Positions 1,847 through 45,486 of a stretch of DNA of 64,000 bases are shown in pieces. Made by a program: the position numbers and the translations under genes. The stretch's first letter is position 1. Each line of letters starts with the position of its first letter. The notes under the pieces were generated by a model that worked only from the letters and a program-made list of their open reading frames with translations, was not told where the DNA came from and ran no database searches. Source of the stretch: Gammaproteobacteria bacterium (GTDB taxonomy: Bacteria; Pseudomonadota; Gammaproteobacteria; Steroidobacterales; Woeseiaceae); assembly GCA_022600955.1 (NCBI GenBank), contig JAHZJK010000024.1, positions 58,003-122,002 of the forward strand. Reading direction: 5' to 3'.

Positions 1847-2374
1847 ATGTCTAACCTATTGCGCAATGCGTTATTGCTCGTAATTGCCGCTAGTCCATTG
1901 CCAGGTGTCGCACAGGATTTATCCGGCGACAACATCCGCAGCCTTGACGGCCAGGTGCAGGAAATCAAATCAGATGTGCTGAGTATCGCCTCTGAACTGA
2001 ATACGCTTGAAGAGCGCCTGCTGTTTCCGTCACACACCCAGGTCTCATTGTTCGTCTCAATTGCCGAAGACGAAGAGTTTCGTCTGGATGCTGTGCAGCT
2101 CGAAATCAACGGTGAGCTTGCGACACATCACATCTACAGTTTCAAAGAACTCGACGCACTGCAGAACGGCGGCGTGCAGAAAATATACACCGGGAATCTG
2201 ACAACCGGCGATCATCAGCTCAACGTGACGATGATCGGCAAGCTGAAAAACGGCAAAGACTTTAACGAGTCAGGAAGCTTCACGTTCAGCAAGGGCGTCA
2301 AGCCAAAGGCGCTCGGTATTACGCTCGCAGGGCCGGGCTTCGGAAGTGACAGGATTCAAGTCGGAGACTGGTAA
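1847..2374 (+). CDS. Conserved exported protein, first gene of Agl/TolQR-like cluster
   Basis: Internal start M44 of ORF 1718-2374 gives a clean signal peptide MSNLLRNALLLVIAASPLPGVAQ; immediately precedes the TPR gene. Confidence 0.6.
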   Translation: MSNLLRNALLLVIAASPLPGVAQDLSGDNIRSLDGQVQEIKSDVLSIASELNTLEERLLFPSHTQVSLFVSIAEDEEFRLDAVQLEINGELATHHIYSFKELDALQNGGVQKIYTGNLTTGDHQLNVTMIGKLKNGKDFNESGSFTFSKGVKPKALGITLAGPGFGSDRIQVGDW

Positions 2375-2377
2375 GCC

Positions 2378-4252
2378 ATGTTTCGGACATCATTTTCGAT
2401 AGTCGGACTGCTGCTGGCGCTTGCGGCGCCGGTTCAGGCGCAGCAGCTTAATGACCTCTACTATGGAGAGGCTCTCTACCATGCGCGCCAGGGACAGTTT
2501 TTCGAAGCGATTGAACGTCTTGATACCGAGGTTTGGCAACACGACCAGATCGACGAGCCGCAACTGGACTCGCTGTACACACATATCAATGATGCTGAAT
2601 TTTCAATTGGCGACTTCGAGCTTCGCTACCGCATGCATCACCGCGCAGGTCGCGCGATTGCAGCCGTGCTCGAAGGTGCCGTAGACGAGGCCGTTCGCAA
2701 TGACGCCGCGTACCGACTGGCACGCATTCACTTTCAAAAACAGCAGATGGATGATGCTCTGCTGGCGCTGGATAGAATCGACGGCGACATACCGCATGCG
2801 ATTCGCGATGACATCGAGTTTCTGCGTGCCAATGTTTACCTGGCGCAAGGCAAGCAACTCGAGTCGGCTGACGTTCTGAAGAAACTGCAGAACTCTGACG
2901 AATACGGCGGGTTCGCTTCCTACAATCTGGGTATCGCGTACTTTCAAAACGGCCAGCGGACCGCCGCGCTCGAGCAACTCGATCGCGCCGGGCAAATCAG
3001 CACGAGCGATCCTGGCGAACTGGCGATACGCGATAAGTCGAACCTCATCATGGGAACAATCCTCCTCGAGGATGGCGAATACCAGGCCTCGTTGCCCCCA
3101 TTGAATCGTGTGCGCCTCGATGGGCCGTTTTCGAACCAGGCCTTGCTCAGTGCCGGCTGGGCCAGCATGTCGATAGAAGACTATGAGCGGGCGGTGGTGC
3201 CATGGAGCATTCTCGCCGAGCGTGAAGTCACGGACAGCGCCACCCAGGAAGCCATGCTTGCGCTGCCGTATGCCTATGGCAAGTTGAATATTCACGGCCG
3301 TGCCGCCATTCACTACGGACGCGCTCTTGATTCATTCGGTGCCGAGATACAGAAGCTCAACACGTCGATAGAAAGTATCCGCGACGGGCATTTTCTCGAG
3401 GCGCTCATCCGCGAAGAGATTCGCCAGAACAAGGACTGGGTGATTCGTCTCAGAACAATGCCCGAGTCGCCAGAGACGTTTTACCTGATGGAGTTGCTGG
3501 CATCGCATGACTTCCAGACCGGCCTGCAGAACTACCTCGATCTTGCCGACCTGCGCCGCAAACTGACGACCTGGAGCGGTGGTTTCGATTCCTTCGATCA
3601 AATGGTCGTCATTCGCCAACAACATTATGAGCCGTTGCTGCCGGACGTCGACGAGAAATTCCGCAAGCTGGACTCGCGCATGCGTTTGCGGGCAGAACAG
3701 CACAGGATGCTGATCAAGCGTCGAGACGATATGTTGACAATGCCGCGTCCGGAGTTTCTGGCCACACCGGAAGAGCAGGCGATTCTCGCGCGCATCGAGA
3801 CGCTCGAAGCGATGGCCGCCCTCAACTTTGACAGCAACGGACCGACCCTGGAACGCCTCGAGCGTCTGAAGGGCATCCTCAGTTACACCTTGCGTACGGA
3901 GTACCACGAACGCTTCACCCGCTTCGACCAAAATGTGCGCAGCCTCGATCAGGCGATGGCCATGGTCCAGGATGAGTACGACGAATACGTGCGCAATCGA
4001 CAGGCGGTGACACACAGCTTTGTAGGCTACGACAAACCGATGAAGCGATTGCGGGCAGACGTGCAGCAATCGGTCGAGAAGATCGACCAGCTCATGGCCC
4101 GCCAGGGTCACCTGCTGGAAATACTCGCGATCGAGCAACTGGTCGCCCGTCGTGATCATCTTGAAAACTATGGCGACAAGGCACGCTTCGCGCTGGCCGA
4201 TAGCTATGATCGGGCCACGCAGGCCCAGGCTAACCTGGACGTGTCCGAATGA
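2378..4252 (+). CDS. Exported TPR-containing protein
   Basis: Signal peptide MFRTSFSIVGLLLALAAPVQAQ; TPR-like helical repeats (ALYHARQGQFFEAIERLD; SYNLGIAYFQNGQRTAALEQLDRAGQ). Overlaps next gene by 4 nt. Confidence 0.75.
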   Translation: MFRTSFSIVGLLLALAAPVQAQQLNDLYYGEALYHARQGQFFEAIERLDTEVWQHDQIDEPQLDSLYTHINDAEFSIGDFELRYRMHHRAGRAIAAVLEGAVDEAVRNDAAYRLARIHFQKQQMDDALLALDRIDGDIPHAIRDDIEFLRANVYLAQGKQLESADVLKKLQNSDEYGGFASYNLGIAYFQNGQRTAALEQLDRAGQISTSDPGELAIRDKSNLIMGTILLEDGEYQASLPPLNRVRLDGPFSNQALLSAGWASMSIEDYERAVVPWSILAEREVTDSATQEAMLALPYAYGKLNIHGRAAIHYGRALDSFGAEIQKLNTSIESIRDGHFLEALIREEIRQNKDWVIRLRTMPESPETFYLMELLASHDFQTGLQNYLDLADLRRKLTTWSGGFDSFDQMVVIRQQHYEPLLPDVDEKFRKLDSRMRLRAEQHRMLIKRRDDMLTMPRPEFLATPEEQAILARIETLEAMAALNFDSNGPTLERLERLKGILSYTLRTEYHERFTRFDQNVRSLDQAMAMVQDEYDEYVRNRQAVTHSFVGYDKPMKRLRADVQQSVEKIDQLMARQGHLLEILAIEQLVARRDHLENYGDKARFALADSYDRATQAQANLDVSE

Positions 4253-7200
4253 GCCGAAATATCTTTCTGTCTGCGTCCATTGCCGTTCTGCTGGCAGGCT
4301 GCGGTACCTCGGCGGTTAAAACCGGAACGCTCGCTGAACTCAGCGCGGTCGATGCCGACCTCAATGATGTCTATCTGGATGACAGCCTGGAGCGGGCGGC
4401 GCAGAGCTACCGTCGCTATCTTGCTGAAACGTCCGAAAGTGCACGCACACCCGAAGCCATGCGACGTCTTGCCGATCTGCAGATCGAGCAAGCCTACGGG
4501 CTGATTGGCGAGGCACCGGCGCGCACGATGGCTGCACCGGAAATTGCGAAGCACGACAGCGACACCGTGGAGACCACGGCGTCCGGCGTTGGCGTCGAAC
4601 TGTCAGAGTCAGATAAAGACTTCGAAGAGCGGGCATCGCAACGCGACGAGTTCTTCGCATCAGAGGCGGGCGATGACACTGAGCTTCTCGCCGTTGAAGG
4701 TGGCTCTGTTCCCTCCGGCCCGCGTGAGGCAATCAAGACTTACAAACAGATTCTCGAGACCTATCCAAACTACGAACGCAACGACAAGGTGCTCTACCAG
4801 ATGTCGCGCGCGTATGACGAAATCGGTCAGCCCGATGAAGCAATGGACGTGATGAACCGTTTCGTTAGCGAGTACCCGCATTCGAAATACGTCGACGAGG
4901 TGCAGTTTCGCCGCGGTGAGTACCACTTCGTCCGGCGCGGTTATCGCGAGGCCGAGGCTGCCTACGACACGGTTATCCGAATGGGCAGTGACTCGTCCTA
5001 CTATGAGTTGTCGCTCTACAAGATGGGCTGGGCACTCTACAAGCAGCAATTCTACGAAGAGGCGCTGGACCGGTTCGTCGCGTTACTCGATTACCAGAAA
5101 TCGATTGGCTATGACTTCGATCAACACCAGGATGACAACGAAGAGCACCGCGTAACGGACACGTTCCGCGTTATCAGCCTGAGCTTTTCCAACCTCGGCG
5201 AGCCACAGTTCGTCGATGAGTACTTTTCGGAGAAAGGTCATCGCAGCTATGGCGACAAGATCTACAGCAATCTTGCAGAGTTCTACTTCGCGAAGCTGCG
5301 TTACGACGATGCGGCCTCGGTGTACCGCTCCTTTATCGAACTGAATGCGTATCACCACAGGTCACCGCACTTCAGTATGCGTGTCGCCGAAATATTCGAA
5401 GAGGCCGACTTTCCGCTACTCGTCGTTGAGGCGAAGCAGGAGTTTGCGACTCGCTATGCACTGTCATCGGAATTCTGGAACCGGCATGAGGTCGCAAGCG
5501 CGCCTGAGGTTGTCGGTTTTCTTAAAACCAACCTGACAGACCTGGCGGGTCATTATCATGCGCTCTACCAGGAAGAAGCCCTGGCTGCGGACAAAGCACA
5601 GAATTTTCACGCCGCACATGACTGGTACCGGCAACTGCTCGGCTCCTTCCCGAATGACGAAGCATCGCCGACCGTTAACTACCGGCTCGCCGATCTGTTG
5701 CTGGAGAATGAGGATTTCAGCGGTGCCGCATTCGAATACGAGCGTACCGCGTATCAATACGCCGAGCACGATCAGGCCGCAGCCGCCGGTTATGCCGCCG
5801 TATTTGCGTACCGCCAGGAGCTCGAGCGAGCGACCGGCGCGCGCCAGCTTGAAGTGAAGGAAGCGACGGTCGAAAGCTCATTGCGATTCGCGGAAACGTT
5901 CACGGCACATGAGCAAGCCCCCGTTGTGCTTGGCGCGGCCGCTGATGATCTCTACGAGATGAAAGACTTCGTGCGTGCGATCGACTCGGCCAGCAAGCTG
6001 ATCGAACGTTACCCGGACTCGGATCCCGAACTGCGCCGTGGCGGCTGGGCGGTTGTCGCGCATTCGTCGATCGACATTGCGGAGTACCAGGACGCTGAGC
6101 ACGCGTACGGCAACCTGTTGCAACTGACGCCTGAAGACGATGAGTCTCTGGCCGCGGTTATTGATGGCCTCGCGGCGTCGATCTACAAGCAGGCCGAACA
6201 AGCGAACCTGTTGCAGGATTACCGGGCCGCCGCAAATCACTTTCTGCGCATCAAGGAGCTGGCACCAACATCCAGTATTCGAACCGCTGCTGAATATGAT
6301 GCCGCCGCCGCGCTGATGAACCTGCAGGACTGGACCTCGGCCGCGGATGTCCTGGAGGAGTTCCGGACGACGCATCCCGAGCACGAACTGCACAACGATG
6401 CGACCAAGCAACTGGCGCATATCTACCGTGAAGATGGCCAGCTCTCGCGGTCTGCCGCTGAGCATGAGCGTGTCGCACGCGAGTCGGACGATCCCGAACT
6501 GCGCCGTGAGGCGCTGCTGGTTGCCGGCAACCTGTATGACGAGGCGAAGGTCGTCGCCGATGCGATCCGCGTCTTTGAACAGTACGTTGAAGAGCATCCG
6601 CGACCCATCGACTACGCAATAGAAACGCGCCAGCGCCTGTCCGAGATTTTCAAAGAGCAAGCCGACTACACACGCTACTACGCTCAGTTGAATGCGATTA
6701 TTGCCGCGGATGGCGAGGCCGGCACTGACCGCAGCGATCGCAGTCGTTTCGTCGCCGCCAACGCCGCGCTGGTTCTTGCCGAGCGCGATTACGAACAGTT
6801 CAGAGACATCAGGCTGGTGCAGCCTTTCGAGGCAAGCCTGGCACAAAAACAAGCTCGCATGGATAGCGCATTGATCGCGCTTGAAAAGCTCGTGGACTAC
6901 GAGGTTGCGGGCGTCACAGCAGCGGCAACGTTTTACATCGCCGAAACGTATCGCGATTTCAGCACGTCATTGATGGAATCAGAACGGCCGGCAGGCCTGT
7001 CGGCGGCTGAGAAAGTCGACTATGAACTCGTTATCGAGGAAGAAGCCTGGCCGTTTGAAGAGCGCGCGATCGAAGTTCATGAAGCGAATTTCGAGTTACT
7101 CGCGGCGGGTGTCTACAACCCATGGGTGCAAAAGAGCCTGGACGAGCTGGCCGTGATGATGCCGGGTCGATACGCGAAAAACGAGAGCAGTGAAGGCTAT

Positions 7201-7356
7201 CTCGGATCCATCGACCTGTACGCCTATCGCATGCCGGTTGTTCCCGACGTGTCGCTTGACCAGGAGGGCGTCGCGGATAGTGCTGCATCACCGGAAGTCG
7301 ATGACGAAAGGACAGCCCCCCTGGAAATTGTCACAAGCACCCTGGTGGAAGAATAG
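4249..7356 (+). CDS. Large TPR lipoprotein (AglT-like)
   Basis: Lipobox-like MSRNIFLSASIAVLLAGCGT; many TPR units (KVLYQMSRAYDEIGQPDEAMDVMNRFVSEYPHSKYVDEVQFRRGEYHF). ATGA overlap with upstream gene. Confidence 0.75.
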   Translation: MSRNIFLSASIAVLLAGCGTSAVKTGTLAELSAVDADLNDVYLDDSLERAAQSYRRYLAETSESARTPEAMRRLADLQIEQAYGLIGEAPARTMAAPEIAKHDSDTVETTASGVGVELSESDKDFEERASQRDEFFASEAGDDTELLAVEGGSVPSGPREAIKTYKQILETYPNYERNDKVLYQMSRAYDEIGQPDEAMDVMNRFVSEYPHSKYVDEVQFRRGEYHFVRRGYREAEAAYDTVIRMGSDSSYYELSLYKMGWALYKQQFYEEALDRFVALLDYQKSIGYDFDQHQDDNEEHRVTDTFRVISLSFSNLGEPQFVDEYFSEKGHRSYGDKIYSNLAEFYFAKLRYDDAASVYRSFIELNAYHHRSPHFSMRVAEIFEEADFPLLVVEAKQEFATRYALSSEFWNRHEVASAPEVVGFLKTNLTDLAGHYHALYQEEALAADKAQNFHAAHDWYRQLLGSFPNDEASPTVNYRLADLLLENEDFSGAAFEYERTAYQYAEHDQAAAAGYAAVFAYRQELERATGARQLEVKEATVESSLRFAETFTAHEQAPVVLGAAADDLYEMKDFVRAIDSASKLIERYPDSDPELRRGGWAVVAHSSIDIAEYQDAEHAYGNLLQLTPEDDESLAAVIDGLAASIYKQAEQANLLQDYRAAANHFLRIKELAPTSSIRTAAEYDAAAALMNLQDWTSAADVLEEFRTTHPEHELHNDATKQLAHIYREDGQLSRSAAEHERVARESDDPELRREALLVAGNLYDEAKVVADAIRVFEQYVEEHPRPIDYAIETRQRLSEIFKEQADYTRYYAQLNAIIAADGEAGTDRSDRSRFVAANAALVLAERDYEQFRDIRLVQPFEASLAQKQARMDSALIALEKLVDYEVAGVTAAATFYIAETYRDFSTSLMESERPAGLSAAEKVDYELVIEEEAWPFEERAIEVHEANFELLAAGVYNPWVQKSLDELAVMMPGRYAKNESSEGYLGSIDLYAYRMPVVPDVSLDQEGVADSAASPEVDDERTAPLEIVTSTLVEE

Positions 7357-7359
7357 ATC

Positions 7360-8004
7360 ATGACAAGCATGTTTAAGCAGAAGACATTTTCAGTCCTGTG
7401 TCAGTACCTCGTGATGATCGGCGCTACCGTGATCTTTGCCGGTTGTAGCGCTACCGGCCATCCGCAGCGCAAGGTCGCCAATATTGAAGTACAGGAAGCC
7501 GTCGGCTTCACGATAACCGAAGAGGTCCGCATCGGGGACCGGGTACGAGGCCAATACTTCGAGGCGTTAAATCACTTGCAGGAAGGCCGGCTCGAGCAAG
7601 GCATCGCGATGCTCGAAGAGATTGCCGAAGCCGCACCACTCGTCACGGCACCGAGAATCGATCTCGGTATGGCCTACCGCCAGCAAGGTGACCTGGAGGC
7701 AGCGGAGCGCAACCTCTTACAGGCATTGCAGCTGAACGCCAACCACCCGGTTGCACACAATGAGTTGGGAATCGTGTACCGAAAAACCGGGCGATTCGCA
7801 GAGGCGAAACAAAGTTACCAAGCCGCAATCGCCGTGTTTCCCGGTTATCACCACGCAAGGCGCAATCTCGCGATCCTTTGTGATCTCTACCTGGCTGATC
7901 TCGGCTGCGCGCTTGAGCAGTACGAGGCATACATGACCACCGTACCGGCCGACGCCGAGGCGAGCATGTGGATAGCCGACCTGCGTAATCGCATGAATCA
8001 ATAG
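7360..8004 (+). CDS. TPR lipoprotein
   Basis: VIFAGCSATG lipobox; TPR units (APRIDLGMAYRQQGDLEAAERNLLQALQLNANHPVAHNELGIVYRKTGRFAEAKQSYQAAI). Confidence 0.75.
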   Translation: MTSMFKQKTFSVLCQYLVMIGATVIFAGCSATGHPQRKVANIEVQEAVGFTITEEVRIGDRVRGQYFEALNHLQEGRLEQGIAMLEEIAEAAPLVTAPRIDLGMAYRQQGDLEAAERNLLQALQLNANHPVAHNELGIVYRKTGRFAEAKQSYQAAIAVFPGYHHARRNLAILCDLYLADLGCALEQYEAYMTTVPADAEASMWIADLRNRMNQ

Positions 8005-8012
8005 GTGACGTC

Positions 8013-8339
8013 ATGAACAAAGCATTGTATTTGTCAGTGGTTCTGGCCTTCACGACATCGACAGCGATTGCTGAGGATGCCGCTGAGGTAAGCGACGCCG
8101 AAGCGGAGCCCGTTGAGGAGGCCGAGGCGCCAGTGGATACCGGCCCCAAAAAGATGTCGGGCATGTCGATCCTGGGTAATGAAGAAACGCCCAAGTCACT
8201 CGTGATCGTCCCCTGGAAATCGTCCGAAATGGGCGACGACATAGGCCTTTCGGACTCTCTGGCCGACCGCGCGCAGCCTGTCGACAAAGAGGTTTTTCTC
8301 CGCGAGCTCGAATACTACGAGATTCGTTCGGCTGATTGA
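8013..8339 (+). CDS. Small conserved exported protein
   Basis: Signal peptide MNKALYLSVVLAFTTSTAIA; body MSGMSILGNEETPKSLVIVPWKSSEMGDDIG; in the cluster. Confidence 0.6.
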   Translation: MNKALYLSVVLAFTTSTAIAEDAAEVSDAEAEPVEEAEAPVDTGPKKMSGMSILGNEETPKSLVIVPWKSSEMGDDIGLSDSLADRAQPVDKEVFLRELEYYEIRSAD

Positions 8340-8439
8340 GTCGAACGTGCGCTGCGTCACGCACTTCACTGCGATGCAAGTCTAATCTGACGTTTGATCG
8401 GTCATAAGCCGATGCATTTTGTTAAATGAGGATTTTGTG

Positions 8440-9090
8440 ATGGACTTTTTCTATTCGATTGTCGCCTTCTTCGCAACCGGTGGTGCGTTCATGTATCCGA
8501 TACTGCTGGTGTTTGCGTTTGGTGTAGCAATAGCGGTGGAACGCTTTGTCACGCTCACCGTGATTACGAACAAGAACCAGGTGGTTTGGAACAAAGTACA
8601 ACCACTGCTGGATAACGGTGAATTTAACGAAGCTCGTGAGATGACCGGCGGAGACGAATCGACGATCTCGCAGGTACTGAACATGGGCTTGTCTTTACAG
8701 GGCGCCGTTCGACGTCGTGAAGATATCGAGATCGCCATGGAGGAGAGCATGATGGAAATCGTGCCGCGCCTCGAAAAACGCACACCGTACGTCGCACTGG
8801 CGTCGAGTATCGCTACCTTGCTTGGACTGCTTGGCACCATCATGGGCCTGATCCAGGCATTTACGGCGGTCGCCAATGCGAACCCGGCGGAAAAGGCAGA
8901 TTTGTTGTCGGCCAGTATTTCTGTCGCGATGAACACGACTGCATTCGGCCTCATGGTGGCCATTCCGTTGCTGATCGTACATGCGATCCTGACCAGCAAG
9001 ACCGGCGACATTGTCGACAGTCTTGAGATGGCAACGGTTAAAGCACTCAATGTATTTTCCAGAAGGGCTCAGCGCGCCGTTGAGGCCTGA
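8440..9090 (+). CDS. MotA/TolQ/ExbB proton channel family protein
   Basis: ORF with ATG at 8440; TM segments and typical TolQ/ExbB region TPYVALASSIATLLGLLGTIMGLIQAFTAVA...AMNTTAFGLMVAIPLLI. Confidence 0.9.
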   Translation: MDFFYSIVAFFATGGAFMYPILLVFAFGVAIAVERFVTLTVITNKNQVVWNKVQPLLDNGEFNEAREMTGGDESTISQVLNMGLSLQGAVRRREDIEIAMEESMMEIVPRLEKRTPYVALASSIATLLGLLGTIMGLIQAFTAVANANPAEKADLLSASISVAMNTTAFGLMVAIPLLIVHAILTSKTGDIVDSLEMATVKALNVFSRRAQRAVEA

Positions 9091-9095
9091 ACGAA

Positions 9096-9590
9096 ATGGC
9101 CCGGAAGAAACATCACTACAGGCGTCGTAAGGGAAACGACTACGAGATTGATGTCACCACCTTCTTGAATCTCATGGTGGTGCTGGTTCCGTTTCTCCTG
9201 ATAACCGCCGTGTTTTCGCGCATCACCATCGTGGAGCTGGACTTGCCGAGTAATGCCGGTGCCGCTACCCCGCAGGTCGAGAGCTTCCGCGTGGAGGTCA
9301 TCGTCAGAGAGGCCGGCATTGAAATCAGCAACGGTACATCGATCATTGCGACGGTGCCGAAGCAGGAAGACGAATACGATTTCGAGGCGCTCTCCGAAAT
9401 GATGGTTGCGCTGAAGCAGGAGTATCCCGATATCGATACGGCTTCGGTGCTTATGGAGGCCTACATTCCCTACGACTACCTGATTCAGGTCATGGACATT
9501 GTTCGTACAGTCGAAGTGCCTACTGACATTGAAGATGAGTACGAGCTGTACGCACTGTTCACCGATATCTCTGTCGGAGAAGCGCCGTGA
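9096..9590 (+). CDS. ExbD/TolR family biopolymer transport protein
   Basis: N-terminal IDVTTFLNLMVVLVPFLLITAVF TM segment and periplasmic domain; directly after the TolQ-like gene. Confidence 0.85.
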   Translation: MARKKHHYRRRKGNDYEIDVTTFLNLMVVLVPFLLITAVFSRITIVELDLPSNAGAATPQVESFRVEVIVREAGIEISNGTSIIATVPKQEDEYDFEALSEMMVALKQEYPDIDTASVLMEAYIPYDYLIQVMDIVRTVEVPTDIEDEYELYALFTDISVGEAP

Positions 9591-10093
9591 GAAACTCGCG
9601 CCGCATCAAACGCATGGGCCGAAATCGCCTGAAGATTTCGAAAATGAATCTGACCTCGCTGATGGACGTTTTCACGATTCTCGTATTCTTCCTGCTCGTC
9701 AACACGGGCTCTGTTGAAGTGCTCGATTCGCCCAAGGAAGTCAGCTTGCCGGAGTCACGGGTAGAGACGAAGCCGCGAGAGACCGTGGTGATATTCATCA
9801 GTCCGACCGATGTACTAGTGCAGGGTCAGCTGGTCGCGCATGTTGACGAAATCCTCGCGGACAAAACGAGTGTGCTCGACCCAATCGCCGCGCGCCTTGC
9901 GGAGTTAAAGGAAAACGTGATCGGTACCAACACACAAGCCGTCGCAAGCAGCCAGGAAGTGACGATTCTCGCCGACAGGTCAGTACCGTTCGTGGTCATC
10001 AAAACGATCATGTCGACGTGTACCGGCGAGGGATACGAGAACGTGTCCCTTGCGGTGACGCAGAAAGGCGGCGCCCAGGTGGCAGCGAACTAG
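9587..10093 (+). CDS. Second ExbD/TolR family protein
   Basis: NLTSLMDVFTILVFFLLVNTGS, typical ExbD N-terminus with TM Asp; 4-nt overlap with previous gene. Confidence 0.87.
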   Translation: MRNSRRIKRMGRNRLKISKMNLTSLMDVFTILVFFLLVNTGSVEVLDSPKEVSLPESRVETKPRETVVIFISPTDVLVQGQLVAHVDEILADKTSVLDPIAARLAELKENVIGTNTQAVASSQEVTILADRSVPFVVIKTIMSTCTGEGYENVSLAVTQKGGAQVAAN

Positions 10094-10117
10094 CGCTGCT
10101 GGTTTGGAGGTGGAAGC

Positions 10118-11524
10118 GTGTCCGAAGAAGAACTTCTAAACGAGGAACAGTCGCTCCAGACGGAGTTTGAGCAATCCGAGCAGCAACTGGCGGATCTCGA
10201 ACGAAATCTGCAGAGCCTCGGCGACGAGCTTGCGGAGCTCGCTGACAAGAGTCATGAGTTCGACTTGCTGCAGCGAATCTGTCGCTCCATGGAGGAACTC
10301 GACAATCTGGGCGCCACAGACCTGTTCTGGAGTGGACAGGACGATGCCGAATCACGCGGCGCCAGGCTTTCAAGCGCGTATCAGAAAATCGACGAGCACA
10401 ATGCCGCTATTGACCGCATCGAGGATCGTCGCAGCGCGCTGTTCGCACAAATAGACGACCAGAATCTGACACTGGATCAACTGCACTACGATCTGGTCGA
10501 CATAGCCGACCGCCGAGAGGAGCGTGAGGGCGAATGGCTGGTCGAGCGTGACGCCAACGCGATCGCCGCGCACAACCAGGTTATGCCATGGTCACGCGGG
10601 AACGAAGAAGATGAGCGTTTTCGCACCTCTCTCTGGTCATCGCTGGCGGCGTCTTTCGTATTTGCTTTGCTGCTCGGTTCCATTGCGATTCCTATCATCG
10701 AGCGCGACCGCATTACAGAAGTGCCTGAACGAGTCGCGAGGCTGGTACAGCAGAACAATGAACGACCGCGCAATGAGCGGGAGCCCGAACCCGTTTTCGA
10801 GGAGCTTCCTGAGCCCGAACCCGAAGAGCTGGCCGAAACGCTGCCAGACGAAGTCGTACCAGAAACCAGCAGTGAGCCCGCCGTGGCAGACAATGCCAAG
10901 GTCGACACCCGCGAGCAGGTGAAATCGAAAGGCATCCTGGCATTCCGCGACAGCTTTGCCAGCAGCGCCAGCTTGCGGCCGACGGCACAACTCGGCTCAC
11001 AGGCCCGATTCAGCAATGCCGGGTCCGACGCTACCGGCCGGCCGACACGATCGATGGTCACGTCAAATGCACCCGGCTCAAGTGGCGGCATCAACCTCGC
11101 CGACATCAGCCGTAATGTCGGCGGTGGCGGTCAGGGTATCGACGGCGTGCAGGTTTCCCGCGTTTCCAGTTCGATCGGAACCGGCGGCAACGGCACCTCG
11201 GATCGACCGCGCAGCGGTGGTGTTTCCGCAGGTCGTACGGATGAGGAAATCCAGATCGTTTTCGATCGCTACAAAGCCTCACTGTACCGTCTCTACAATC
11301 GAGAGCTTCGCAAGGACCCGACGCTGCGCGGCCAGATAACGCTGAAGTTGACCATTGAGCCCGACGGGTCTGTCTCATTCTGTGTCATGCAGTCTTCCGA
11401 CATGAATGCGCCCATGCTGGCCCAACAGGTTGTCGAACGAGTCATCGGTTTCGACTTCGGTGCCAAAGAGGACATCGTTGCAGTTACCATAATCTACCCA
11501 ATCGACTTCCTGCCGGCCGCCTGA
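10118..11524 (+). CDS. AgmX/PglI C-terminal / TonB-like energy-transducing protein
   Basis: GTG start; N-terminal coiled coil, TM SLAASFVFALLLGSIAIPII, Pro/Glu-rich linker, C-terminal IVFDRYKASLYRLYNRELRKDPTLRGQITLKLTIEPDGSVSFC, TonB/AgmX-like. Confidence 0.75.
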   Translation: MSEEELLNEEQSLQTEFEQSEQQLADLERNLQSLGDELAELADKSHEFDLLQRICRSMEELDNLGATDLFWSGQDDAESRGARLSSAYQKIDEHNAAIDRIEDRRSALFAQIDDQNLTLDQLHYDLVDIADRREEREGEWLVERDANAIAAHNQVMPWSRGNEEDERFRTSLWSSLAASFVFALLLGSIAIPIIERDRITEVPERVARLVQQNNERPRNEREPEPVFEELPEPEPEELAETLPDEVVPETSSEPAVADNAKVDTREQVKSKGILAFRDSFASSASLRPTAQLGSQARFSNAGSDATGRPTRSMVTSNAPGSSGGINLADISRNVGGGGQGIDGVQVSRVSSSIGTGGNGTSDRPRSGGVSAGRTDEEIQIVFDRYKASLYRLYNRELRKDPTLRGQITLKLTIEPDGSVSFCVMQSSDMNAPMLAQQVVERVIGFDFGAKEDIVAVTIIYPIDFLPAA

Positions 11525-14700: not shown

Positions 14701-16695
14701 GTATTGCGTTTTCGCGCCATTATCGATCCGAACCTTGCCGAAGGCACGACTATAGTAAACACCGCGCGCGCGTACTGGGACGACCCGGAACAGCAGGCAG
14801 AAGCAACGGTCATGATCGATGTCGGCGCGATGCCGGACGCCGGGATGCTGAGTGGCTATGTCTGGCATGACGCGGATCACGAGAATACTTTCGGCACGCT
14901 CGAACGGCCGCTCGAGAGCTGGCTGGTCGAACTGTCGCTGGATGGCGAGCCGGTACGTTCGATGATGACGGATGTCGATGGCTACTACCTGTTCGCGAAT
15001 GTCATTCCGAACTACGACCCGAACTCGATGTATTCCCTGCGCTTTAGTGCGCCGGGCGCCGTTTCGACAACCGCATTGCTGGGCGCGACAGACTCCGACT
15101 TCACGGATGGCCAGCAGGAAATTACCGAGATCGATGTCCAGGAAGGCAGCAATCTGCTTGGGTTGAACATGCCGGTCGACCCGAACGGCGTTGTCTACGA
15201 CTCAGTCAGCAGGACGCCGGTTCGCGGCGCCATCGTGACCATGGCTGACCCGCGCAATGGCGTTGCACTGCCGAGCGCGTGTTTCGACGACCCGAATCAC
15301 CAGGGCCAGGTCACTGTAGGCAACGGCTACTACAAGTTCGATATCAATTTCTCCGATGCAGCCTGTCCGAGTGGTCTCAACTACCTGATGCAGGTTGTTG
15401 CCCCGGACACGAGCTTTGTACCGGGTGTTTCGGAGCTGATTCCGCCGACCTCGGACGAAACAACGCTGCCGTTCGACGTACCGGCCTGTCCGGGGTCGAC
15501 GAATGACGCCGTGTCAGGCGTATTGCCAACCTGTGAAGCCCAGGCCTCCGAGTTCGCGCCGCCAACATCGGTTCCTGCGCAAAGCGCCGCGACCGACTAC
15601 CACCTGTTCCTGCGGCTGAGCTCCGCACAGGTGCCTGGCTCAAGTCAGCTCTTTAACAACCACGTACCGCTGGACCCACGCCTTGACGGGGCGATTGCGA
15701 TCACCAAGACCACACCGTTGTTAAACGTGACGCGCGGACAGCTTGTGCCTTACGTCATTACTATCAGGAACTCGTTCGGCGAAGAGCTGCAGGACGTCAA
15801 CGTGATTGACAGCTTCCCGGCTGGCTTCCGTTACATCGAGGGATCTGCGAGATTTGATGACCAGCCGCTTGAACCTACCGTTGTCGGTCGCGACCTGGTC
15901 TGGTCTGGCTTTACGCTCGCCATCGACGGGCGTCACACGATCAAACTACTGCTGGCACCGGGTGCTGGCGTCACTGAAGGTGAGTTTGTTAACCGGGCGC
16001 AGGCGACCAACGCACTGTTGGGCAGCGCCATATCGGAACAGGCATCAGCGACGGTACGCATCATCCCGGACCCGACATTCGACTGCACCGATGTAACCGG
16101 CAAGGTATTCAGCGATAACAATCGCAATGGTTACCAGGACGAAGGCGAAGAGGGCTTGCCTGGTGTGCGCGTGGTGACGGCGAAGGGCCTCGTCGCGAGT
16201 ACCGATTCCTACGGTCGCTATCACATCACCTGCGCCATCGTTCCGCACGAGAGCCGTGGCAGCAATTTCGTTCTGAAAGTCGACGACCGGACGCTGCCGA
16301 GCGGCTTCCGCACATCGACGCGCCCGGTGCAGGTGCAGCGAGCGACCCGCGGTAAAGCGCTGCGCGTCAATTTCGGAGCGTCGATACACCGTGTCGTCGG
16401 TCTTGATATCGCAGATGCGGTCTTCGAGCCAAACGACGTGCGCATGCGTCAGCAATGGGAGCCGCGTATATCGCTGCTGCTCGAAGAGTTACAGAAGGCG
16501 CCGGCAACACTGCGTCTCTCGTATGTCGCAGATATCGAACCGGAAGCGCTGGTACTGCAACGCCTGGAAAGCCTGAAAACGCAGATCAAGACTGCATGGG
16601 AAGCGCAGAACTGTTGTTATGAACTGGTTATAGAGCCGGAGGTTCACTGGCGTCTCGGTGCACCGGCAGACGTACCGCGTGGAGGTGAGCAATGA
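11758..16695 (+). CDS. DUF11-repeat surface protein with C-terminal OmpA-like remnant
   Basis: Repeated DUF11 units (TPGDTLRYTLRVENAGNTPLDVFEISDELDNLN; AGESMRYTITVQNTGTDNATGVNIVDQIPANTTYVADSTMLNG). Alternative start 11815 gives a better signal peptide (MKSFIVFMAMSVLASAAIVPSGNALA). Confidence 0.85.
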   Translation: MTLGMMATTHSHFATRASAMKSFIVFMAMSVLASAAIVPSGNALAAEITFVSVVGAWRDPVDNVPGVQPGDPVIVNGDPISSISWGTATGPQSGYDFIATLPPPFDLPGPIPYFSLGTFQHRNFEVGDPSLVSAELDVLLVLAIDGVPTGPLNFTFTLNHEETPNNLDPCPYPTPPGEGCTDRVTIVASAEPTTFNVDGVDYTLEMSFLDNGSPVDEFITREGDTVNSSGLVGEFTLPPGLTVTKTGPATMRLGEWGNFVIGVQNESESDAYTATLLDQLPDGPTGGMCDTVPEVLSARVFAADGVTAIPGKGPLAEGADYTLAYSGATCELTFNTLSAASVIGVNERLVITYRTQLDADSQDGVILTNVAAATEWFNSDASTNYRRNLTDGTVGVGDHEDAHSVTVDLPSLLFEKTVVNVTTGEDPGTVATPGDTLRYTLRVENAGNTPLDVFEISDELDNLNATPMFAAGTLVVTSAANGIDNSDANGGTAGTGLVDISGLSLGGLGDSVSIEFEVQLASVIANDSIVLNQSEAMSNGYPIALSDDPYVNGVADPNVVGDEDPTEILIQSAPAFTVEKISTYLEGNPNVLLAGESMRYTITVQNTGTDNATGVNIVDQIPANTTYVADSTMLNGIAVPDAASSALVDGILVNAPEDTTPGYMNAGVADNVATITFDVMVDPGVPDGTIISNQAFVSAVDQGVADQPSDDPRTDVPDDPTLDVVGNFPLLFAAKSAALQIDNGSPGIVDPDDTLRYTITMYNNGSVPATLVELFDDVPTYTSYVADSTTLNGAPLGQPDGGVFPLAARIDVSSADLPLPGPGEGILSPGESAVVQFDLLVDTATPRGSLIVNQATVYSAEVANLLTDGDGNPATGPEPTVVVVGDAQALTIVKEVSVVNGGPARAGETLEYVVTVQNVGLVPALYVRIRDDLDEVNPNYLTYVDQSATLNGLATGVSFADPVITADYFATYGALGPGETVVLRFRAIIDPNLAEGTTIVNTARAYWDDPEQQAEATVMIDVGAMPDAGMLSGYVWHDADHENTFGTLERPLESWLVELSLDGEPVRSMMTDVDGYYLFANVIPNYDPNSMYSLRFSAPGAVSTTALLGATDSDFTDGQQEITEIDVQEGSNLLGLNMPVDPNGVVYDSVSRTPVRGAIVTMADPRNGVALPSACFDDPNHQGQVTVGNGYYKFDINFSDAACPSGLNYLMQVVAPDTSFVPGVSELIPPTSDETTLPFDVPACPGSTNDAVSGVLPTCEAQASEFAPPTSVPAQSAATDYHLFLRLSSAQVPGSSQLFNNHVPLDPRLDGAIAITKTTPLLNVTRGQLVPYVITIRNSFGEELQDVNVIDSFPAGFRYIEGSARFDDQPLEPTVVGRDLVWSGFTLAIDGRHTIKLLLAPGAGVTEGEFVNRAQATNALLGSAISEQASATVRIIPDPTFDCTDVTGKVFSDNNRNGYQDEGEEGLPGVRVVTAKGLVASTDSYGRYHITCAIVPHESRGSNFVLKVDDRTLPSGFRTSTRPVQVQRATRGKALRVNFGASIHRVVGLDIADAVFEPNDVRMRQQWEPRISLLLEELQKAPATLRLSYVADIEPEALVLQRLESLKTQIKTAWEAQNCCYELVIEPEVHWRLGAPADVPRGGEQ

Positions 16696-19600
16696 AATCA
16701 CTGAACCGCCTGGCTGCACTCTGGCTTCTGCTGCCGTTGACCGCGATGGCGCAGGACGTTGACGAGACGTCGATGGGTGAGGCTGTAGAGCGTCACCTGA
16801 CAAACGACATCGACTTTACACAGTGGGTGCTCGACCCCAGTCGCCTGGCGACCGAAGCAAGCGATGAAATCGGGACCCGCGAAACACTGGAAGACGGTCT
16901 TGAAACCGTGAAGCTCGGCAATGTGGTTGCACCGATTCTTTTCGAGACCGGTGTTGCGCAGATTCCCGAGGGTACGGTCGAGGCACTGGGTGAGATTCTC
17001 GACGGTATGAAAGACCGCATGAATGTTCGCCTGCACCTTATCGGGCATGCGGACAACCAGCCGCTGTCGCCGCGTCTCGTGAAGATCTATACAGACAATA
17101 TGGGCCTGTCGCACGAACGTGCCGGCGAGGTAGCTGAGTACATGCAAACGGCACTAGCATTGCCGCCCGAAGCCGTTACCTATTCATGGCAGGGTGATCT
17201 GAGTCCAGTCGCTTCCAACAGCACGTCGTCTGGCAGGGCACAGAACAGGCGCGTTGAGGGTGAGGTCTGGTATGACGAGCGGGTCGATAAGCTTGGGCTC
17301 GAAGAGTTCCTCGTTGAACACGAGGTCAAGACGATCAAGGTCTGCCGCATCGAAACGGTTTGTAAACTGCGCTACGTCGACGGGCACTCTAAGCGCGCCC
17401 GCGTTCAGAACCTGATCGCGCCGCTGCACTACGGGGCCGAATCTGCGCAGGTTGATGACGACTTCGTCCAGCAGGTGCGTGAGGGTTTCAGCAACCTCGG
17501 CAGCAAAGAGAACGTTGTCGTGAAGTTCGTTGGCTACACGGACGGCACACCGCTGGCGGGCCGCACAGAACGTATTTACGGCGACCACACGGGCCTGTCG
17601 AAAGCACATGCGCGGCGCGTTGCACTGGCAATACAGGATGAGTTGAAACTACCGACCAGTTCCATCGAAAGCGACGGCCGCGGTGCCGAAAGGCCGATTG
17701 CGAGTAACGAGACATCACAGGGACGCGCACTGAATCGCCGCGTCGAAGTCGAATTCTGGTACGACGATCCGCTGCAGGATCTGCCGGACGAACCGCAGAT
17801 GTGTCCGGGTGACGCGGGCGCCGAGATGGTGACGAGAGTTTATGACCCACCCTGGGGCAGCATTAGCGACCTGAGCTTTGCGGACGGTAAGCCCGTCATT
17901 GCGGACGGTTACACGGCATTACTACGGCGCGGCCTGCAGGACGTGGCAGACAAGACCAAACCGCGACTGCGTTTTGTCGGCTACACACGTAACGAGCGCC
18001 TTGCGCGCCGCACGGCGGGTGTCTACACAGATGACGTTGGTCTGTCGGCATCACGCGCACGGCGTGCAATGGAACAGATCGCCACGGACATGAACCTCGA
18101 TCCTGCCGAAACGGAATTCGAAGGGCGCGGCTTCGTGCACTCGGACGACGTTGTTAACGCAGGCTTTGTGCAGGGCGAGACGTCACATGTGTCCGTGCAG
18201 GTTGTCTACGACGAGCTTGCGTTGCTGGACGACTACGACGGTGTTGATGTTACGCGCATGACACGTGAGCTGAGCCCGGAGAACGCGCTGGGTCTGAATC
18301 TCATGCGGATCACCGTCGATGGTGAACCGATCGACGATCCGAAGCGCAGCTCGGCAGACATCCAACGTTGTACCGACGTAGCCCTCGCGAAAGCGGACAT
18401 CCAGTTTGGCTTCGACAACCTGCGTTCTGCGCCGCGACTGAGTGTTCTGGCAGAGCCGCAACGCATCGCGGTTGCAGCACTCGATAACGGTGAGATTTAC
18501 GCGTCGGAAGTGACCTTCCGCATGTACACGAACTACTCGCATTTCGTTGACCGGGCTGAGATTCGCGTCTTCGAAACCGGGCAATCGCTTGAGAGCGAGC
18601 CTCTCGATGTCGTTGCCCTGAACGTGGACGGCAGCTCATCGTGGCGGCCGACCTCCGACAGTTTCCGCGCACCGGCCGAAAAGCTGGCGTACGTGCTCAG
18701 GGCCTACGGCGAGGACGGCAATTTTGACGAGACGGCGCCGCAAGCACTGCTGATCGACTATGACGAAGAGGTCGCCCTGGAAGAAATCGAACTGGACCAT
18801 GGGTGGGACGATTCGTCGTACCAGGACGCCATGCTGTTCTCGGCCTACGGTGAGAATACGCTGGGCATGCACAACATCGGCCTGAGCAGTGGCACAGTGA
18901 GTGTACGCGGCAGCGGCATCGCAAAAGACCAGGAAGTCTTTGTGGCTGGCCGGCCGATCCCGGTGGACGAAAACGGTGAGTTCATCGCGGAAGAAATTCT
19001 GCCGCAGGGGCTGCATACGGTTGAAGTCGCGGTGCTGAATAGCGAAAGACACGGCGAACTGTATCTGCGTGACCTCGAGTTCGAGAACAACGACTGGTTC
19101 TACGTAGGTATGGCAGACCTGACGGTGTCAGGTGGCAAGATCAGCGGCCCGATCGACCTGTTGCAGGGTGCGAACTCGGGCAGGGACCCTGACTCTGACC
19201 TTGATGCGCGCCTGGCGTTCTACGTGAATGGCAAGTTCGGCGATCACTGGCGTGTAACGGCCAGCGCGGATACGCGTGAGGGTCCGATCGAAGATATCTT
19301 TAGCGGCTTTATGGACAAGTCGCCTGACGCGTTCTTCAGGCGCATCGACGAGCAGTACTACTACCCGACATTCGGTGACGACAGCACGGTCGCCGAGATG
19401 GCGCCGACGATGGGCAAGTTCTACGTTCGCGTCAGCCAGGACGACACGTTCGGCCAATGGGGCAACTTCAAAGTCGCTTACCTGAACAACGAGCTGGCAC
19501 ACGTCGATCGCGGCATGTACGGCGCAAACGCGCATCACCAGTCCGATGCGACGACTGAGTTCGGCGAACGCAAATACGCCGCGGATGTGTTTGCAGCAGA

Positions 19601-21788
19601 GCCGGGAACCATTAGTAGCCGGGAAGAATTCCGGGGCACGGGTGGGTCGCTGTATTTCTTGCAACGCCAGGACTTGCTCACGGGCTCGGAACGCGTGCGT
19701 ATCGAACTGCGTGACAAGGCCTCTGGCATCGTCACCGGTGTTGTAAACCTGACACCGGCGATCGACTACGACATCGACTACCTGCAGGGCCGCGTTGTCC
19801 TGACAGATCCTCTGTCTTCAGTCGCGAACGACAACTTGCTGGTGCGCAGCGGATCGGTATCGGGTGACGAGGCGTATCTCGTTGTGCGCTACGAATACAG
19901 CCCGGGATTCGGTGACATGGATGCCATGTCGGTGGGCGGCCAGGCGCACTACTGGTTCGGTGAGCATGTGAAGCTCGGCGTGACATCCAACGTGAACGAG
20001 CAAGACGGGGAAGACAGCTCTCTGCAGGCGGCTGACCTGACCGTCAGGCTGGCGTCCGAGTCGTGGGTGAAGGTGCAGCAGGCGACCAGCGAAGGGCTGT
20101 TGTCGATGCCGTTGTTCTCGACAGATGGCGGTTACGAATTCAACAGCTACGACTCTGCGCAGTTTATCAACGCGAAGGCAGACGCCAGTCGCGCGGATAT
20201 CAGCATGCGCGCGACGGACATCGTCGACTTCGGTATTGATGCGCGCATGACGCTCTACGTCCAGGAAGTGGATGCGGGATATTCCGCGCCGGGCCTGACG
20301 GCACTCACTGATACCCGTAACTATGGCGGAACGTTTAACCTGCCGCTGGCGGATCGATTCAATTTTGGCGCCAAGATTGACTACCGGAACCAGCAGCAGA
20401 GCATTGAGACTCGAGCACTCGAATACAATGTGGCCTACAAGCTCGGCGAGCGCTGGGACATCAATCTTGGTTACCGCAAAGACGAGCGCACGGACCAGCA
20501 AGTGATCGTGCCGTTTACGCAGGACGAAGGCATTCGAGAAGACGGCGTTCTGCAGGTGGGCTATGACTCGAAGTCTGACTGGAACGTATACGGTTTTGTC
20601 CAGGACACGCTGTCAGCAACCGGATCGCGCCAGGAAAACTCACGTGTCGGTATGGGCGGCACGATGCAGTTCTCAGAAAAACTGCAGATTGATGCAGAAG
20701 TTTCCAGTGGTGACCTCGGCGAGGGCGGCCGCCTTGGCACGAACTACAGTTACTCGGACACGACCAGCCTGTACCTGAACTACACGCTGGAAAACGAACG
20801 TGCTGACAACGGCCTGAACACGGTCCGCGGCAGCCAGGGCAATCTCGTTGCGGGCGTCAAGTCACGTCTGGCCGATAGCGCCAGCGTCTATCTCGAAGAG
20901 CGCTACCAGCGTACCGACGCGAGCATGGGTCTGACGCACTCAACCGGTATCAGCCTGTCGCTGCGCGACAAATGGAGCCTCGGTTTCAATACGGACATTG
21001 GTACATTGCATGACACCTTCAGCGGCGCTGAGACGGAACGCGTTGCGGGCGGCGTACAACTCGGTTTCTCATCGGGCGACTTGCAGCTCGCCAGTGGCAT
21101 CGAGTACCGCACGGACGATGTCGAACAGACGGACCTGAGCCGCACCGAACGCTATACCTGGCTGTTCCGCAACAGTCTGAAATACCAGCTGGGGCCGTCG
21201 GGTCGCATCATCGGCAGCCTGAATCATTCGGAAAGTGAGAGCTCGCTCGGCACGTTCTACGACGGCGGCTACACGGAAGCGGTAGCCGGTTACGCTTATC
21301 GGCCTGTCAGCAACGACCGTGTGAATGCGATGCTCAAGTACACGTACTTCTACAATGTACCGACAACAGACCAGCTCACACTGCAGAACACTGCTGCTGA
21401 GTTCATCCAGAAGAGCCACATCGCAGCTGTCGACGTGACCTATGATCTAACGCCGCGCTTTTCAATTGGCGGCAAGTACGCCTACCGTCTTGGCCAAATG
21501 AGCCTGGACCGAGAGAATCCGGAATTCTTCGAGAACAATGCGAACCTTTACGTTGTTCGTGGCGACTACCGCTTCCGCGAGAACTGGGAGTTTATGGCCG
21601 AGGCCCGCATGCTCGATATGCCTGACCTGGACGACAGTCGCAGTGGCTTCCTGACGACCGTGTCGCGCTACCTCGGTGACCACCTCAAGATCGGTCTTGG
21701 CTACAATTTCACCGATTTCTCGGATGACCTGACCGACCTAAGCTATGACAATCAGGGCGTATTCCTGAACGTCACAGGCAGCCTGTAG
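16692..21788 (+). CDS. Giant OmpA-repeat protein with C-terminal outer-membrane beta-barrel
   Basis: Signal peptide; three OmpA-like units (FETGVAQIPEGTVEALGEIL...RRVEGEVWYDE; GYTDGTPLAGRTERIYGDHTGLSKAHARRVA...NRRVEVEFWYDD; GYTRNERLARRTAGVYTDDVGLSASRARRAM), then long aromatic/beta-rich stretches typical of barrels. Confidence 0.8.
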   Translation: MKSLNRLAALWLLLPLTAMAQDVDETSMGEAVERHLTNDIDFTQWVLDPSRLATEASDEIGTRETLEDGLETVKLGNVVAPILFETGVAQIPEGTVEALGEILDGMKDRMNVRLHLIGHADNQPLSPRLVKIYTDNMGLSHERAGEVAEYMQTALALPPEAVTYSWQGDLSPVASNSTSSGRAQNRRVEGEVWYDERVDKLGLEEFLVEHEVKTIKVCRIETVCKLRYVDGHSKRARVQNLIAPLHYGAESAQVDDDFVQQVREGFSNLGSKENVVVKFVGYTDGTPLAGRTERIYGDHTGLSKAHARRVALAIQDELKLPTSSIESDGRGAERPIASNETSQGRALNRRVEVEFWYDDPLQDLPDEPQMCPGDAGAEMVTRVYDPPWGSISDLSFADGKPVIADGYTALLRRGLQDVADKTKPRLRFVGYTRNERLARRTAGVYTDDVGLSASRARRAMEQIATDMNLDPAETEFEGRGFVHSDDVVNAGFVQGETSHVSVQVVYDELALLDDYDGVDVTRMTRELSPENALGLNLMRITVDGEPIDDPKRSSADIQRCTDVALAKADIQFGFDNLRSAPRLSVLAEPQRIAVAALDNGEIYASEVTFRMYTNYSHFVDRAEIRVFETGQSLESEPLDVVALNVDGSSSWRPTSDSFRAPAEKLAYVLRAYGEDGNFDETAPQALLIDYDEEVALEEIELDHGWDDSSYQDAMLFSAYGENTLGMHNIGLSSGTVSVRGSGIAKDQEVFVAGRPIPVDENGEFIAEEILPQGLHTVEVAVLNSERHGELYLRDLEFENNDWFYVGMADLTVSGGKISGPIDLLQGANSGRDPDSDLDARLAFYVNGKFGDHWRVTASADTREGPIEDIFSGFMDKSPDAFFRRIDEQYYYPTFGDDSTVAEMAPTMGKFYVRVSQDDTFGQWGNFKVAYLNNELAHVDRGMYGANAHHQSDATTEFGERKYAADVFAAEPGTISSREEFRGTGGSLYFLQRQDLLTGSERVRIELRDKASGIVTGVVNLTPAIDYDIDYLQGRVVLTDPLSSVANDNLLVRSGSVSGDEAYLVVRYEYSPGFGDMDAMSVGGQAHYWFGEHVKLGVTSNVNEQDGEDSSLQAADLTVRLASESWVKVQQATSEGLLSMPLFSTDGGYEFNSYDSAQFINAKADASRADISMRATDIVDFGIDARMTLYVQEVDAGYSAPGLTALTDTRNYGGTFNLPLADRFNFGAKIDYRNQQQSIETRALEYNVAYKLGERWDINLGYRKDERTDQQVIVPFTQDEGIREDGVLQVGYDSKSDWNVYGFVQDTLSATGSRQENSRVGMGGTMQFSEKLQIDAEVSSGDLGEGGRLGTNYSYSDTTSLYLNYTLENERADNGLNTVRGSQGNLVAGVKSRLADSASVYLEERYQRTDASMGLTHSTGISLSLRDKWSLGFNTDIGTLHDTFSGAETERVAGGVQLGFSSGDLQLASGIEYRTDDVEQTDLSRTERYTWLFRNSLKYQLGPSGRIIGSLNHSESESSLGTFYDGGYTEAVAGYAYRPVSNDRVNAMLKYTYFYNVPTTDQLTLQNTAAEFIQKSHIAAVDVTYDLTPRFSIGGKYAYRLGQMSLDRENPEFFENNANLYVVRGDYRFRENWEFMAEARMLDMPDLDDSRSGFLTTVSRYLGDHLKIGLGYNFTDFSDDLTDLSYDNQGVFLNVTGSL

Positions 21789-45460: not shown

Positions 45461-45486
45461 TCGAACCCACACCAGGAGTAGCAGGC

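What the first reader, a model, noticed from the sequence alone, without database searches (positions are those of the whole stretch)
1847..21788. Agl/TolQR-like motor cluster coupled to a DUF11 adhesin and OmpA-barrel: candidate surface machine
Ten same-strand genes with repeated 4-nt overlaps encode exported TPR proteins, one TolQ/ExbB, two ExbD, an AgmX/TonB-like transducer, a 1,645-aa DUF11 protein and a 1,698-aa OmpA/barrel protein. Established: TolQR-like proteins with TPR partners power Myxococcus adventurous gliding (Agl). Inference: here a proton-driven motor acts on an envelope-spanning adhesin or secretion apparatus. I know of no characterised function for this gene order.
Basis: partly seen in the sequence, partly recalled or inferred. 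Interest (0 to 1): 0.75.

Follow-up and report, generated by a model that had tools for sequence, protein, structure and literature searches.

The report
Glt-type motor with its own adhesin
An eleven-gene block, found in at least four bacterial phyla, joins a proton-driven motor related to the one that powers Myxococcus gliding to a giant stalk-like adhesin and a large outer-membrane barrel, so it is probably a machine that pulls on or moves a protein fibre at the cell surface.

Summary
What I found in no paper is the outer-membrane half: a DUF11 protein (P10) and a triple-OmpA/barrel protein (P11).

Gammaproteobacterial cores split into two types. The alpha type (this window) is collinear with P10-P11 in all seven other gammaproteobacterial loci I read and in myxobacteria; it is permuted in Desulfuromonadales. 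In 323 genomes alpha-GltD occurs in 12 of the 13 genomes with full-length P11 and nowhere else. The beta type (20 loci, and a second copy in this genome) never has P10-P11 beside it. Myxobacteria fuse P10 and P11 into one ~5,100-aa protein. Motor and P11 trees agree (r=0.94). P10's six DUF11 repeats carry isopeptide triads.

The P10-P11 pair also occurs without any motor, so the motor is probably not needed to build the fibre; most likely it moves or tensions it. The first ExbD naturally has Asn at the proton-carrying Asp position.

The parts
1847..2374 (+). P1: ~175-aa exported protein, no known family; first gene of the core in both alpha and beta types
   Evidence: ATG at 1847 (an upstream TTG at 1718 is possible)
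2378..4252 (+). P2: 624-aa exported TPR protein (GltC-like position)
   Evidence: collinear homologues; NCBIfam GltC cut-off not met
4249..7356 (+). P3: 1,035-aa TPR lipoprotein, GltD-like, alpha type
   Evidence: lipobox LAGC, also in 6 of 7 alpha homologues
7360..8004 (+). P4: 214-aa TPR lipoprotein, GltE-like
8013..8339 (+). P5: 108-aa exported protein with conserved C-terminus, present in alpha and beta cores
8440..9090 (+). P6: TolQ/ExbB/AglR-type proton channel subunit
   Evidence: TTG at 8419 also possible
9096..9590 (+). P7: first ExbD, with Asn (N25) at the membrane proton-site Asp position
9587..10093 (+). P8: second ExbD, proton-site Asp kept (D27)
10118..11524 (+). P9: AgmX/GltG-type transducer; single TM near 176, alpha-specific N-terminal cytoplasmic ~170 aa
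11758..16695 (+). P10: 1,645-aa exported DUF11 stalk protein, six repeats with Lys-Asp-Asn triads, conserved C-terminus
16692..21788 (+). P11: 1,698-aa protein with three OmpA-like domains and a long C-terminal beta-barrel-like region; overlaps P10 by 4 nt

Best explanation
This is a pmf-driven trans-envelope machine of the Agl/Glt-core class with its own outer-membrane output module. P6-P8 form a TolQR-like motor in the inner membrane. P9 transmits its force across the periplasm, together with the TPR proteins P2-P4. P11 sits in the outer membrane, held to peptidoglycan by its OmpA-like domains. P10 is a long DUF11 fibre whose conserved C-terminus is seated on P11 and whose N-terminus points outward. 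The motor most likely drags, rotates or tensions the P10-P11 unit along or against the surface, giving active adhesion or slow surface movement, much as Agl-Glt moves its outer-membrane module and slime in Myxococcus. Shown here: gene content, alpha-type-specific linkage, co-inheritance, natural P10-P11 fusion, intact channel and transducer domains. Inferred: localisation, P10-P11 contact in the split form, force transfer, and the phenotype.
For: Full collinear P1-P11 in the window and in 7 of 7 other gammaproteobacterial loci; the same P1-P9 followed by a fused P10-P11 gene in Myxococcota; permuted order P10-P11-P1...P9 in Desulfuromonadales. Among 323 gammaproteobacteria, alpha-type P3 is in 12 of 13 genomes with full-length P11 and 0 of 310 others (Fisher p 6e-21); same contig and strand in 8 of 8 unfragmented cases. 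20 beta cores have no P10/P11 next to them. Motor and P11 distances correlate at r=0.944 (0 of 2,000 permutations), and both trees nest Myxococcota and Acidobacteriota beside gammaproteobacteria. P10 shows a fibrillar adhesin layout: signal peptide, DUF11 repeats all with the Lys-Asp-Asn triad of isopeptide-stapled stalk domains (PMC12617251), gene length 1,610 to ~5,000 aa, and variable N-terminal part with conserved C-terminus. OmpA domains 1 and 2 of P11 keep the peptidoglycan-binding Asp and Arg. In Myxococcus, Agl motors transport Glt/Nfs complexes and their surface cargo (PMC3858216).
Against: No phenotype, localisation or interaction data exist. The P10-P11 pair occurs without any detected Glt-type core in three genomes (G077, G291, G318), so the coupling is not obligatory for the pair. 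Gene linkage cannot tell force transfer from co-regulation. Gliding is not known in most hosts. P7 lacks the proton-site Asp, so the motor may not work exactly like AglRQS.
Confidence: 0.52

Rival explanations
1. Energised export: P11 is the outer-membrane channel through which P10 is exported, and the motor powers that export; the machine is a secretion system for a giant adhesin.
For: P10 and P11 are adjacent and often overlap by 4 nt (54 of 74 loci); the fused form has passenger-then-barrel order like an autotransporter; the barrel region is very long, about 860 aa; P10 can reach about 5,000 aa.
Against: P10-P11 pairs exist in genomes with no GltD-like core at all (G077, G291, G318), so a dedicated motor is not generally needed. 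In the fused form the OmpA domains, which should be periplasmic, lie between stalk and barrel.
Confidence: 0.2
2. Envelope tether: a Tol-Pal-like device in which the motor cycles P11's OmpA domains on and off peptidoglycan to keep the outer membrane attached; P10 is a passive surface layer.
For: Three OmpA-like domains in P11, two with intact peptidoglycan-binding residues; a TolQR-like motor.
Against: No TolB or Pal in the cluster; P6 scores 56.5 bits against a TolQ cut-off of 221; patchy distribution across phyla with apparent horizontal transfer does not suit a housekeeping role; the large DUF11 protein is always kept.
Confidence: 0.13
3. Surface coat or polymer assembly: like Agl-Nfs, the machine moves a polymer over the cell, with P10 forming or guiding a coat.
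For: The Nfs paralogue of Glt wraps the spore coat (PMC3858216); DUF11 proteins also occur in archaeal surface layers (PMC12617251).
Against: No polysaccharide synthesis or export genes were identified in the eleven-gene block; P10 is itself a protein fibre.
Confidence: 0.1
4. P10-P11 are an independent adhesin pair that merely shares an operon with a core complex whose function is elsewhere.
For: The pair exists alone; the core exists alone as the beta type.
Against: The alpha core never appears without the pair in 323 genomes, it is inherited with it, and gene order can permute without breaking the linkage.
Confidence: 0.08

Closest known systems
Agl/Glt core complex of gammaproteobacteria and Geobacter (Luciano et al. 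2011, PMC3169522)
   Same: One TolQ/ExbB, two ExbD, three TPR proteins and a GltG/AgmX-type transducer in one cluster; collinear with P2-P9; reported as of unknown function, with one extra gene missing from Myxococcales.
   Different: The main text reports a standalone core and mentions no DUF11 or OmpA-barrel partner. Here only the alpha subtype carries them; the beta subtype fits the standalone description. I could not read its Figure S1.
Myxococcus xanthus Agl-Glt gliding machine
   Same: Related motor, TPR proteins and transducer; outer-membrane barrels plus a surface adhesin as output.
   Different: Its output module (GltA, B, H, K, CglB) is different; P10-P11 look like a separate solution. 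Here the first ExbD has Asn where both myxobacterial ExbD proteins are reported to have Asp; transducer lacks the FHA domain.
Agl-Nfs spore-coat transporter
   Same: Same motor class moving an outer-membrane complex and its surface cargo.
   Different: Cargo is a polysaccharide; no DUF11 fibre is described.
DUF11 (CLIPPER) fibrillar adhesins with an OmpA-like anchor (PMC12617251)
   Same: Signal peptide, tandem DUF11 stalk with Lys-Asp-Asn triads, OmpA-type anchoring nearby.
   Different: The described adhesin is one polypeptide with no motor; here the anchor is usually a separate triple-OmpA barrel protein inside a motor operon.
GldLM-SprB gliding of Bacteroidota
   Same: A pmf motor moving a giant surface adhesin, with a giant outer-membrane barrel (SprA) in the system (SprA from general knowledge).
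   Different: No type IX secretion genes in the block and no sequence match of P11's barrel region to any solved structure; likeness is in plan only.

Membership tests
Agl/Glt core complex | One MotA/TolQ/ExbB subunit plus two ExbD/TolR subunits in tandem | tested here: met
   94, 54.0 and 53.6 bits, order P6-P7-P8
Agl/Glt core complex | GltG/AgmX-type single-TM transducer | tested here: met
   AgmX/PglI C-terminal domain 54.6 bits, cut-off 40; one TM segment near residue 176
Agl/Glt core complex | Exported TPR proteins of the GltC, GltD and GltE kind in the same cluster and order | tested here: met
   P2-P3-P4; collinear with myxobacterial clusters, mostly 20-30% identity. NCBIfam GltC, GltE and GltG equivalog cut-offs are not reached
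Agl/Glt core complex | Motor groups with AglR-like proteins rather than the host's other TolQ/ExbB | tested here: met
   97/95 support for alpha, beta and myxobacterial rows together; some long branches
M. xanthus gliding machine | Group A genes gltA, B, F, H, I, J, K and CglB | not tested
   None identified among the eleven genes; no genome-wide search was made
M. xanthus gliding machine | Proton-site Asp in both ExbD proteins (AglQ, AglS) | tested here: not met
   P7 has Asn, P8 has Asp; AglQ and AglS are both described as carrying the Asp (PMC9389320)
M. xanthus gliding machine | Gliding motility | not testable with these tools
   Needs live cells
Tol-Pal | TolQ equivalog, TolB and Pal in the cluster | tested here: not met
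   TolQ 56.5 bits against cut-off 221; no TolB; Pal model 25 bits against 125
Ton system | TonB C-terminal domain | tested here: not met
   PF03544 16 bits, cut-off 24.6
DUF11/CLIPPER fibrillar adhesin | Signal peptide and tandem DUF11 repeats with isopeptide triads | tested here: met
DUF11/CLIPPER fibrillar adhesin | OmpA-like anchor in the same polypeptide | tested here: inconclusive
   P10's C-terminus aligns only weakly to P11's OmpA domains (p 0.03-0.04 against 0.18-0.5 for controls); fused in Myxococcota
DUF11/CLIPPER fibrillar adhesin | Surface exposure and binding | not testable with these tools
   Needs labelling

The most novel reading that the evidence does not exclude
A third, so far unrecognised type of motor-driven surface machine: a proton motor with one Asp-bearing and one Asn-bearing ExbD drives a protein fibre, an isopeptide-stapled DUF11 adhesin of up to about 5,000 aa seated on a giant peptidoglycan-bound barrel, spread over four phyla by horizontal transfer, giving adhesin-based surface movement in bacteria not known to glide.
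Probability: 0.33. Interest if true: 0.82.

Novelty: new variant of a known kind. Interest (0 to 1): 0.62.

Why it matters
Luciano et al. asked what the core complex does in bacteria that do not glide, and which outer-membrane blocks it works with. For one well-defined subtype this gives a concrete answer to test: the block is a DUF11 fibre on a triple-OmpA barrel. Cultured hosts exist (Microbulbifer, Alcanivorax). The alpha/beta contrast, the natural P10-P11 fusion, and motor-less P10-P11 pairs make clean comparisons. The Asn/Asp ExbD pair raises a separate question about how a 5:2 rotary motor runs with one proton site.

Tried and rejected
P11's barrel profile matches no solved structure. 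P10's C-terminus as a fourth OmpA domain: not supported. Tol-Pal and Ton assignments: rejected on scores. The idea that P10-P11 always go with a motor: rejected. The idea that the second core in this genome also carries P10-P11: rejected. Promoters and terminators: nothing clearly above chance, no internal terminator at the P9-P10 gap. Literature searches combining DUF11 with OmpA, TolQ, AgmX or gliding found no description of the locus; the library holds only open-access papers and no bioRxiv preprints.

Full report
WHAT IS THERE. The window carries eleven + strand genes between 1847 and 21788, here called P1-P11. Domain scans confirm TPR repeats in P2, P3 and P4, a MotA/TolQ/ExbB protein (P6), two ExbD proteins (P7, P8), an AgmX/PglI-type transducer (P9; 54.6 bits, cut-off 40), a DUF11 protein (P10) and an OmpA protein (P11). 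P3 and P4 have lipoprotein signals; P1, P2, P5, P10 and P11 look like they have signal peptides (sequence inspection). The host is a Woeseiaceae-like gammaproteobacterium, judged from the closest relatives. The window lies on contig 35 of a 3.86 Mb assembly.

THE MOTOR HALF IS KNOWN. Luciano et al. 2011 (PMC3169522) showed that aglR, Q, S with gltC, D, E, G cluster in gammaproteobacteria, one betaproteobacterium and Geobacter as a core complex of unknown function, with one extra gene lacking in Myxococcales. P2-P9 match that order. I checked this against myxobacterial clusters taken from unnamed Myxococcota genomes: gltD-gltE-aglR-aglQ-aglS sets are collinear with P3-P4-P6-P7-P8, with a gltG-like gene following in one of the three (L123-L125), at low identity (P6 about 34-44%, P3 20-27%). 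A tree of the ExbB subunit groups alpha, beta and myxobacterial rows together and apart from the host's other ExbB-family proteins (97/95), though several branches are long. A later paper calls the gammaproteobacterial core standalone and suggests a basal transport machine (PMC3858216).

TWO KINDS OF CORE. The host genome has a second complete P1-P9 core on contig 8 without DUF11 or OmpA neighbours. In 323 gammaproteobacterial genomes, GltD-like proteins fall into an alpha type (42-66% identical to P3, 12 genomes counting the host) and a beta type (26-42%, in most of the 78 genomes with any match). Full-length P11 is in 13 genomes; 12 have alpha-type P3 and none of the other 310 does (Fisher p 6e-21; related genomes are not independent, so the p-value is only a guide). 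In the eight genomes where both lie on one contig, they share the strand and lie up to about 21 kb apart. I read seven further alpha loci and all have the full P1-P11 order (in one, P2 is seen only as a disrupted frame beside an enlarged P3 frame); I read twenty beta loci and none has P10 or P11 beside it. Alpha P9 is 446-472 aa and has an N-terminal cytoplasmic region of about 170 aa; beta P9 is 307-357 aa.

SPREAD AND CO-INHERITANCE. P11 relatives came from Gamma- and Betaproteobacteria, Desulfuromonadales, Acidobacteriota, Myxococcota and, as single metagenome bins, Nitrospirae, Gemmatimonadota and Anaerolineales. In Desulfuromonadales the order is permuted: P10-P11 come before P1-P9. In Myxococcota P1-P9 are followed by one gene of about 5,100 codons that joins P10 to P11 in frame; the fusion is seen in three genomes, and the complete P1-P9 plus fusion in two of them. 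Pairwise distances of the motor (P6+P7+P8) and of P11 correlate at 0.944 over 25 loci, 0 of 2,000 permutations as high, and the two trees place Myxococcota and Acidobacteriota in nearly the same position beside gammaproteobacteria. This fits horizontal transfer of the whole block.

P10. Six DUF11 repeats each hold the Lys, Asp and Asn expected for an intramolecular isopeptide bond (with the last two Asn read by eye). DUF11 was recently shown to be such a domain and to form stalks of fibrillar adhesins (PMC12617251). The gene ranges from 1,610 codons to about 5,000 in alpha loci. The proximal region (from about residues 130-350 to the C-terminus) is kept at 45-60% identity in distant loci, while the N-terminal part varies. 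That is the layout of a fibre with a variable tip and a conserved base.

P11. Three OmpA-like domains are supported by profile comparison. Domains 1 and 2 keep the Asp and Arg used to bind peptidoglycan (D121, R143; D284, R308/R309); domain 3 has Arg where Asp is expected. About 860 residues follow, with dozens of amphipathic beta segments by a crude count (41 candidate segments from residue 780 on, certainly with false positives). The end of the protein resembles an outer-membrane insertion signal (sequence inspection). No solved barrel matches by sequence.

ASYMMETRIC MOTOR. The first ExbD has Asn at the proton-site position in 33 of 33 readable alpha-like sequences, 20 of 21 readable beta-like sequences and the three myxobacterial gltDE-linked sets (which are counted within those best-match classes); the second ExbD keeps Asp wherever it could be read. 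In M. xanthus the AglQ D28N mutant has no proton conductance and paralyses the machine (PMC3858216). Whether P7 is the strict counterpart of AglQ is not shown.

LIMITS. A shorter P10-P11 pair stands without any adjacent motor in four genomes read (G077, G159, G291, G318); three of them have no GltD-like protein at all, while G159 has a beta-type core elsewhere. Fused or paired DUF11-barrel proteins also occur apart from cores in others, including contig 25 of the host. So the outer-membrane pair is a module older or wider than its link to the motor. This argues against the motor being required to build the fibre and in favour of the motor acting on a fibre that can already assemble; a motor of another kind working in trans was not excluded. 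In one Terriglobia locus the ExbB is of another lineage while P3, P4, P5, P9, P10 and P11 remain, which suggests the motor can be swapped.

MECHANISM. The best-supported reading is an inner-membrane proton motor acting through P9 and the TPR proteins on a P11-anchored P10 fibre. Steps shown: gene content, linkage specific to the alpha type, co-inheritance, natural fusion, intact motor and transducer domains. Steps inferred: location, contacts in the split form, force transfer and outcome. Motor-driven adhesion or surface movement is my first choice; energised export, envelope tethering and coat assembly are the rivals.

VERDICT. It is a new variant of a known kind: a Glt-core machine with a different, protein-fibre output module.

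Noticed in passing
window 9096-10093; L128-L147, L123-L125: The first ExbD of the pair carries Asn at the proton-site Asp position across alpha and beta cores and three myxobacterial sets; the second keeps Asp. A natural one-Asp heteropair.
   Followed up: partly
L093 (own genome, contig 8), 4514-13597: A second, complete P1-P9 core (beta type) in the same genome, without DUF11 or OmpA neighbours.
   Followed up: yes
L094 (own genome, contig 25), 5832-14527 minus strand: A 1,990-aa protein with DUF11, OmpA and barrel-like parts, next to two smaller proteins (one with a weak DUF11 hit, the other resembling P10's repeats), with no motor nearby.
   Followed up: partly
L068, 3202-3918: Terriglobia alpha-like locus whose ExbB is only 26% identical and falls outside the alpha clade although P9-P11 are kept: an apparent motor swap.
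   Followed up: partly
L071 and L075 (Microbulbifer sp. YPW16): Two tandem P10-P11 pairs in one genome downstream of one core.
   Followed up: no
L167 (G115 contig 2): An open frame reported as 11,777 aa ends in a P11-like barrel, which would be a very large fusion.
   Followed up: no
window 45418-53592 +: A 2,724-aa protein with NHL, FG-GAP and thrombospondin type 3 repeats, probably another surface protein.
   Followed up: no
window 42101-44779 +: An 892-aa protein kinase with TPR repeats.
   Followed up: no
window 24627-25868 +: A C5 cytosine DNA methylase; GC content falls from about 0.59 to 0.50-0.53 from 20 kb onward, possibly a mobile or acquired stretch.
   Followed up: no
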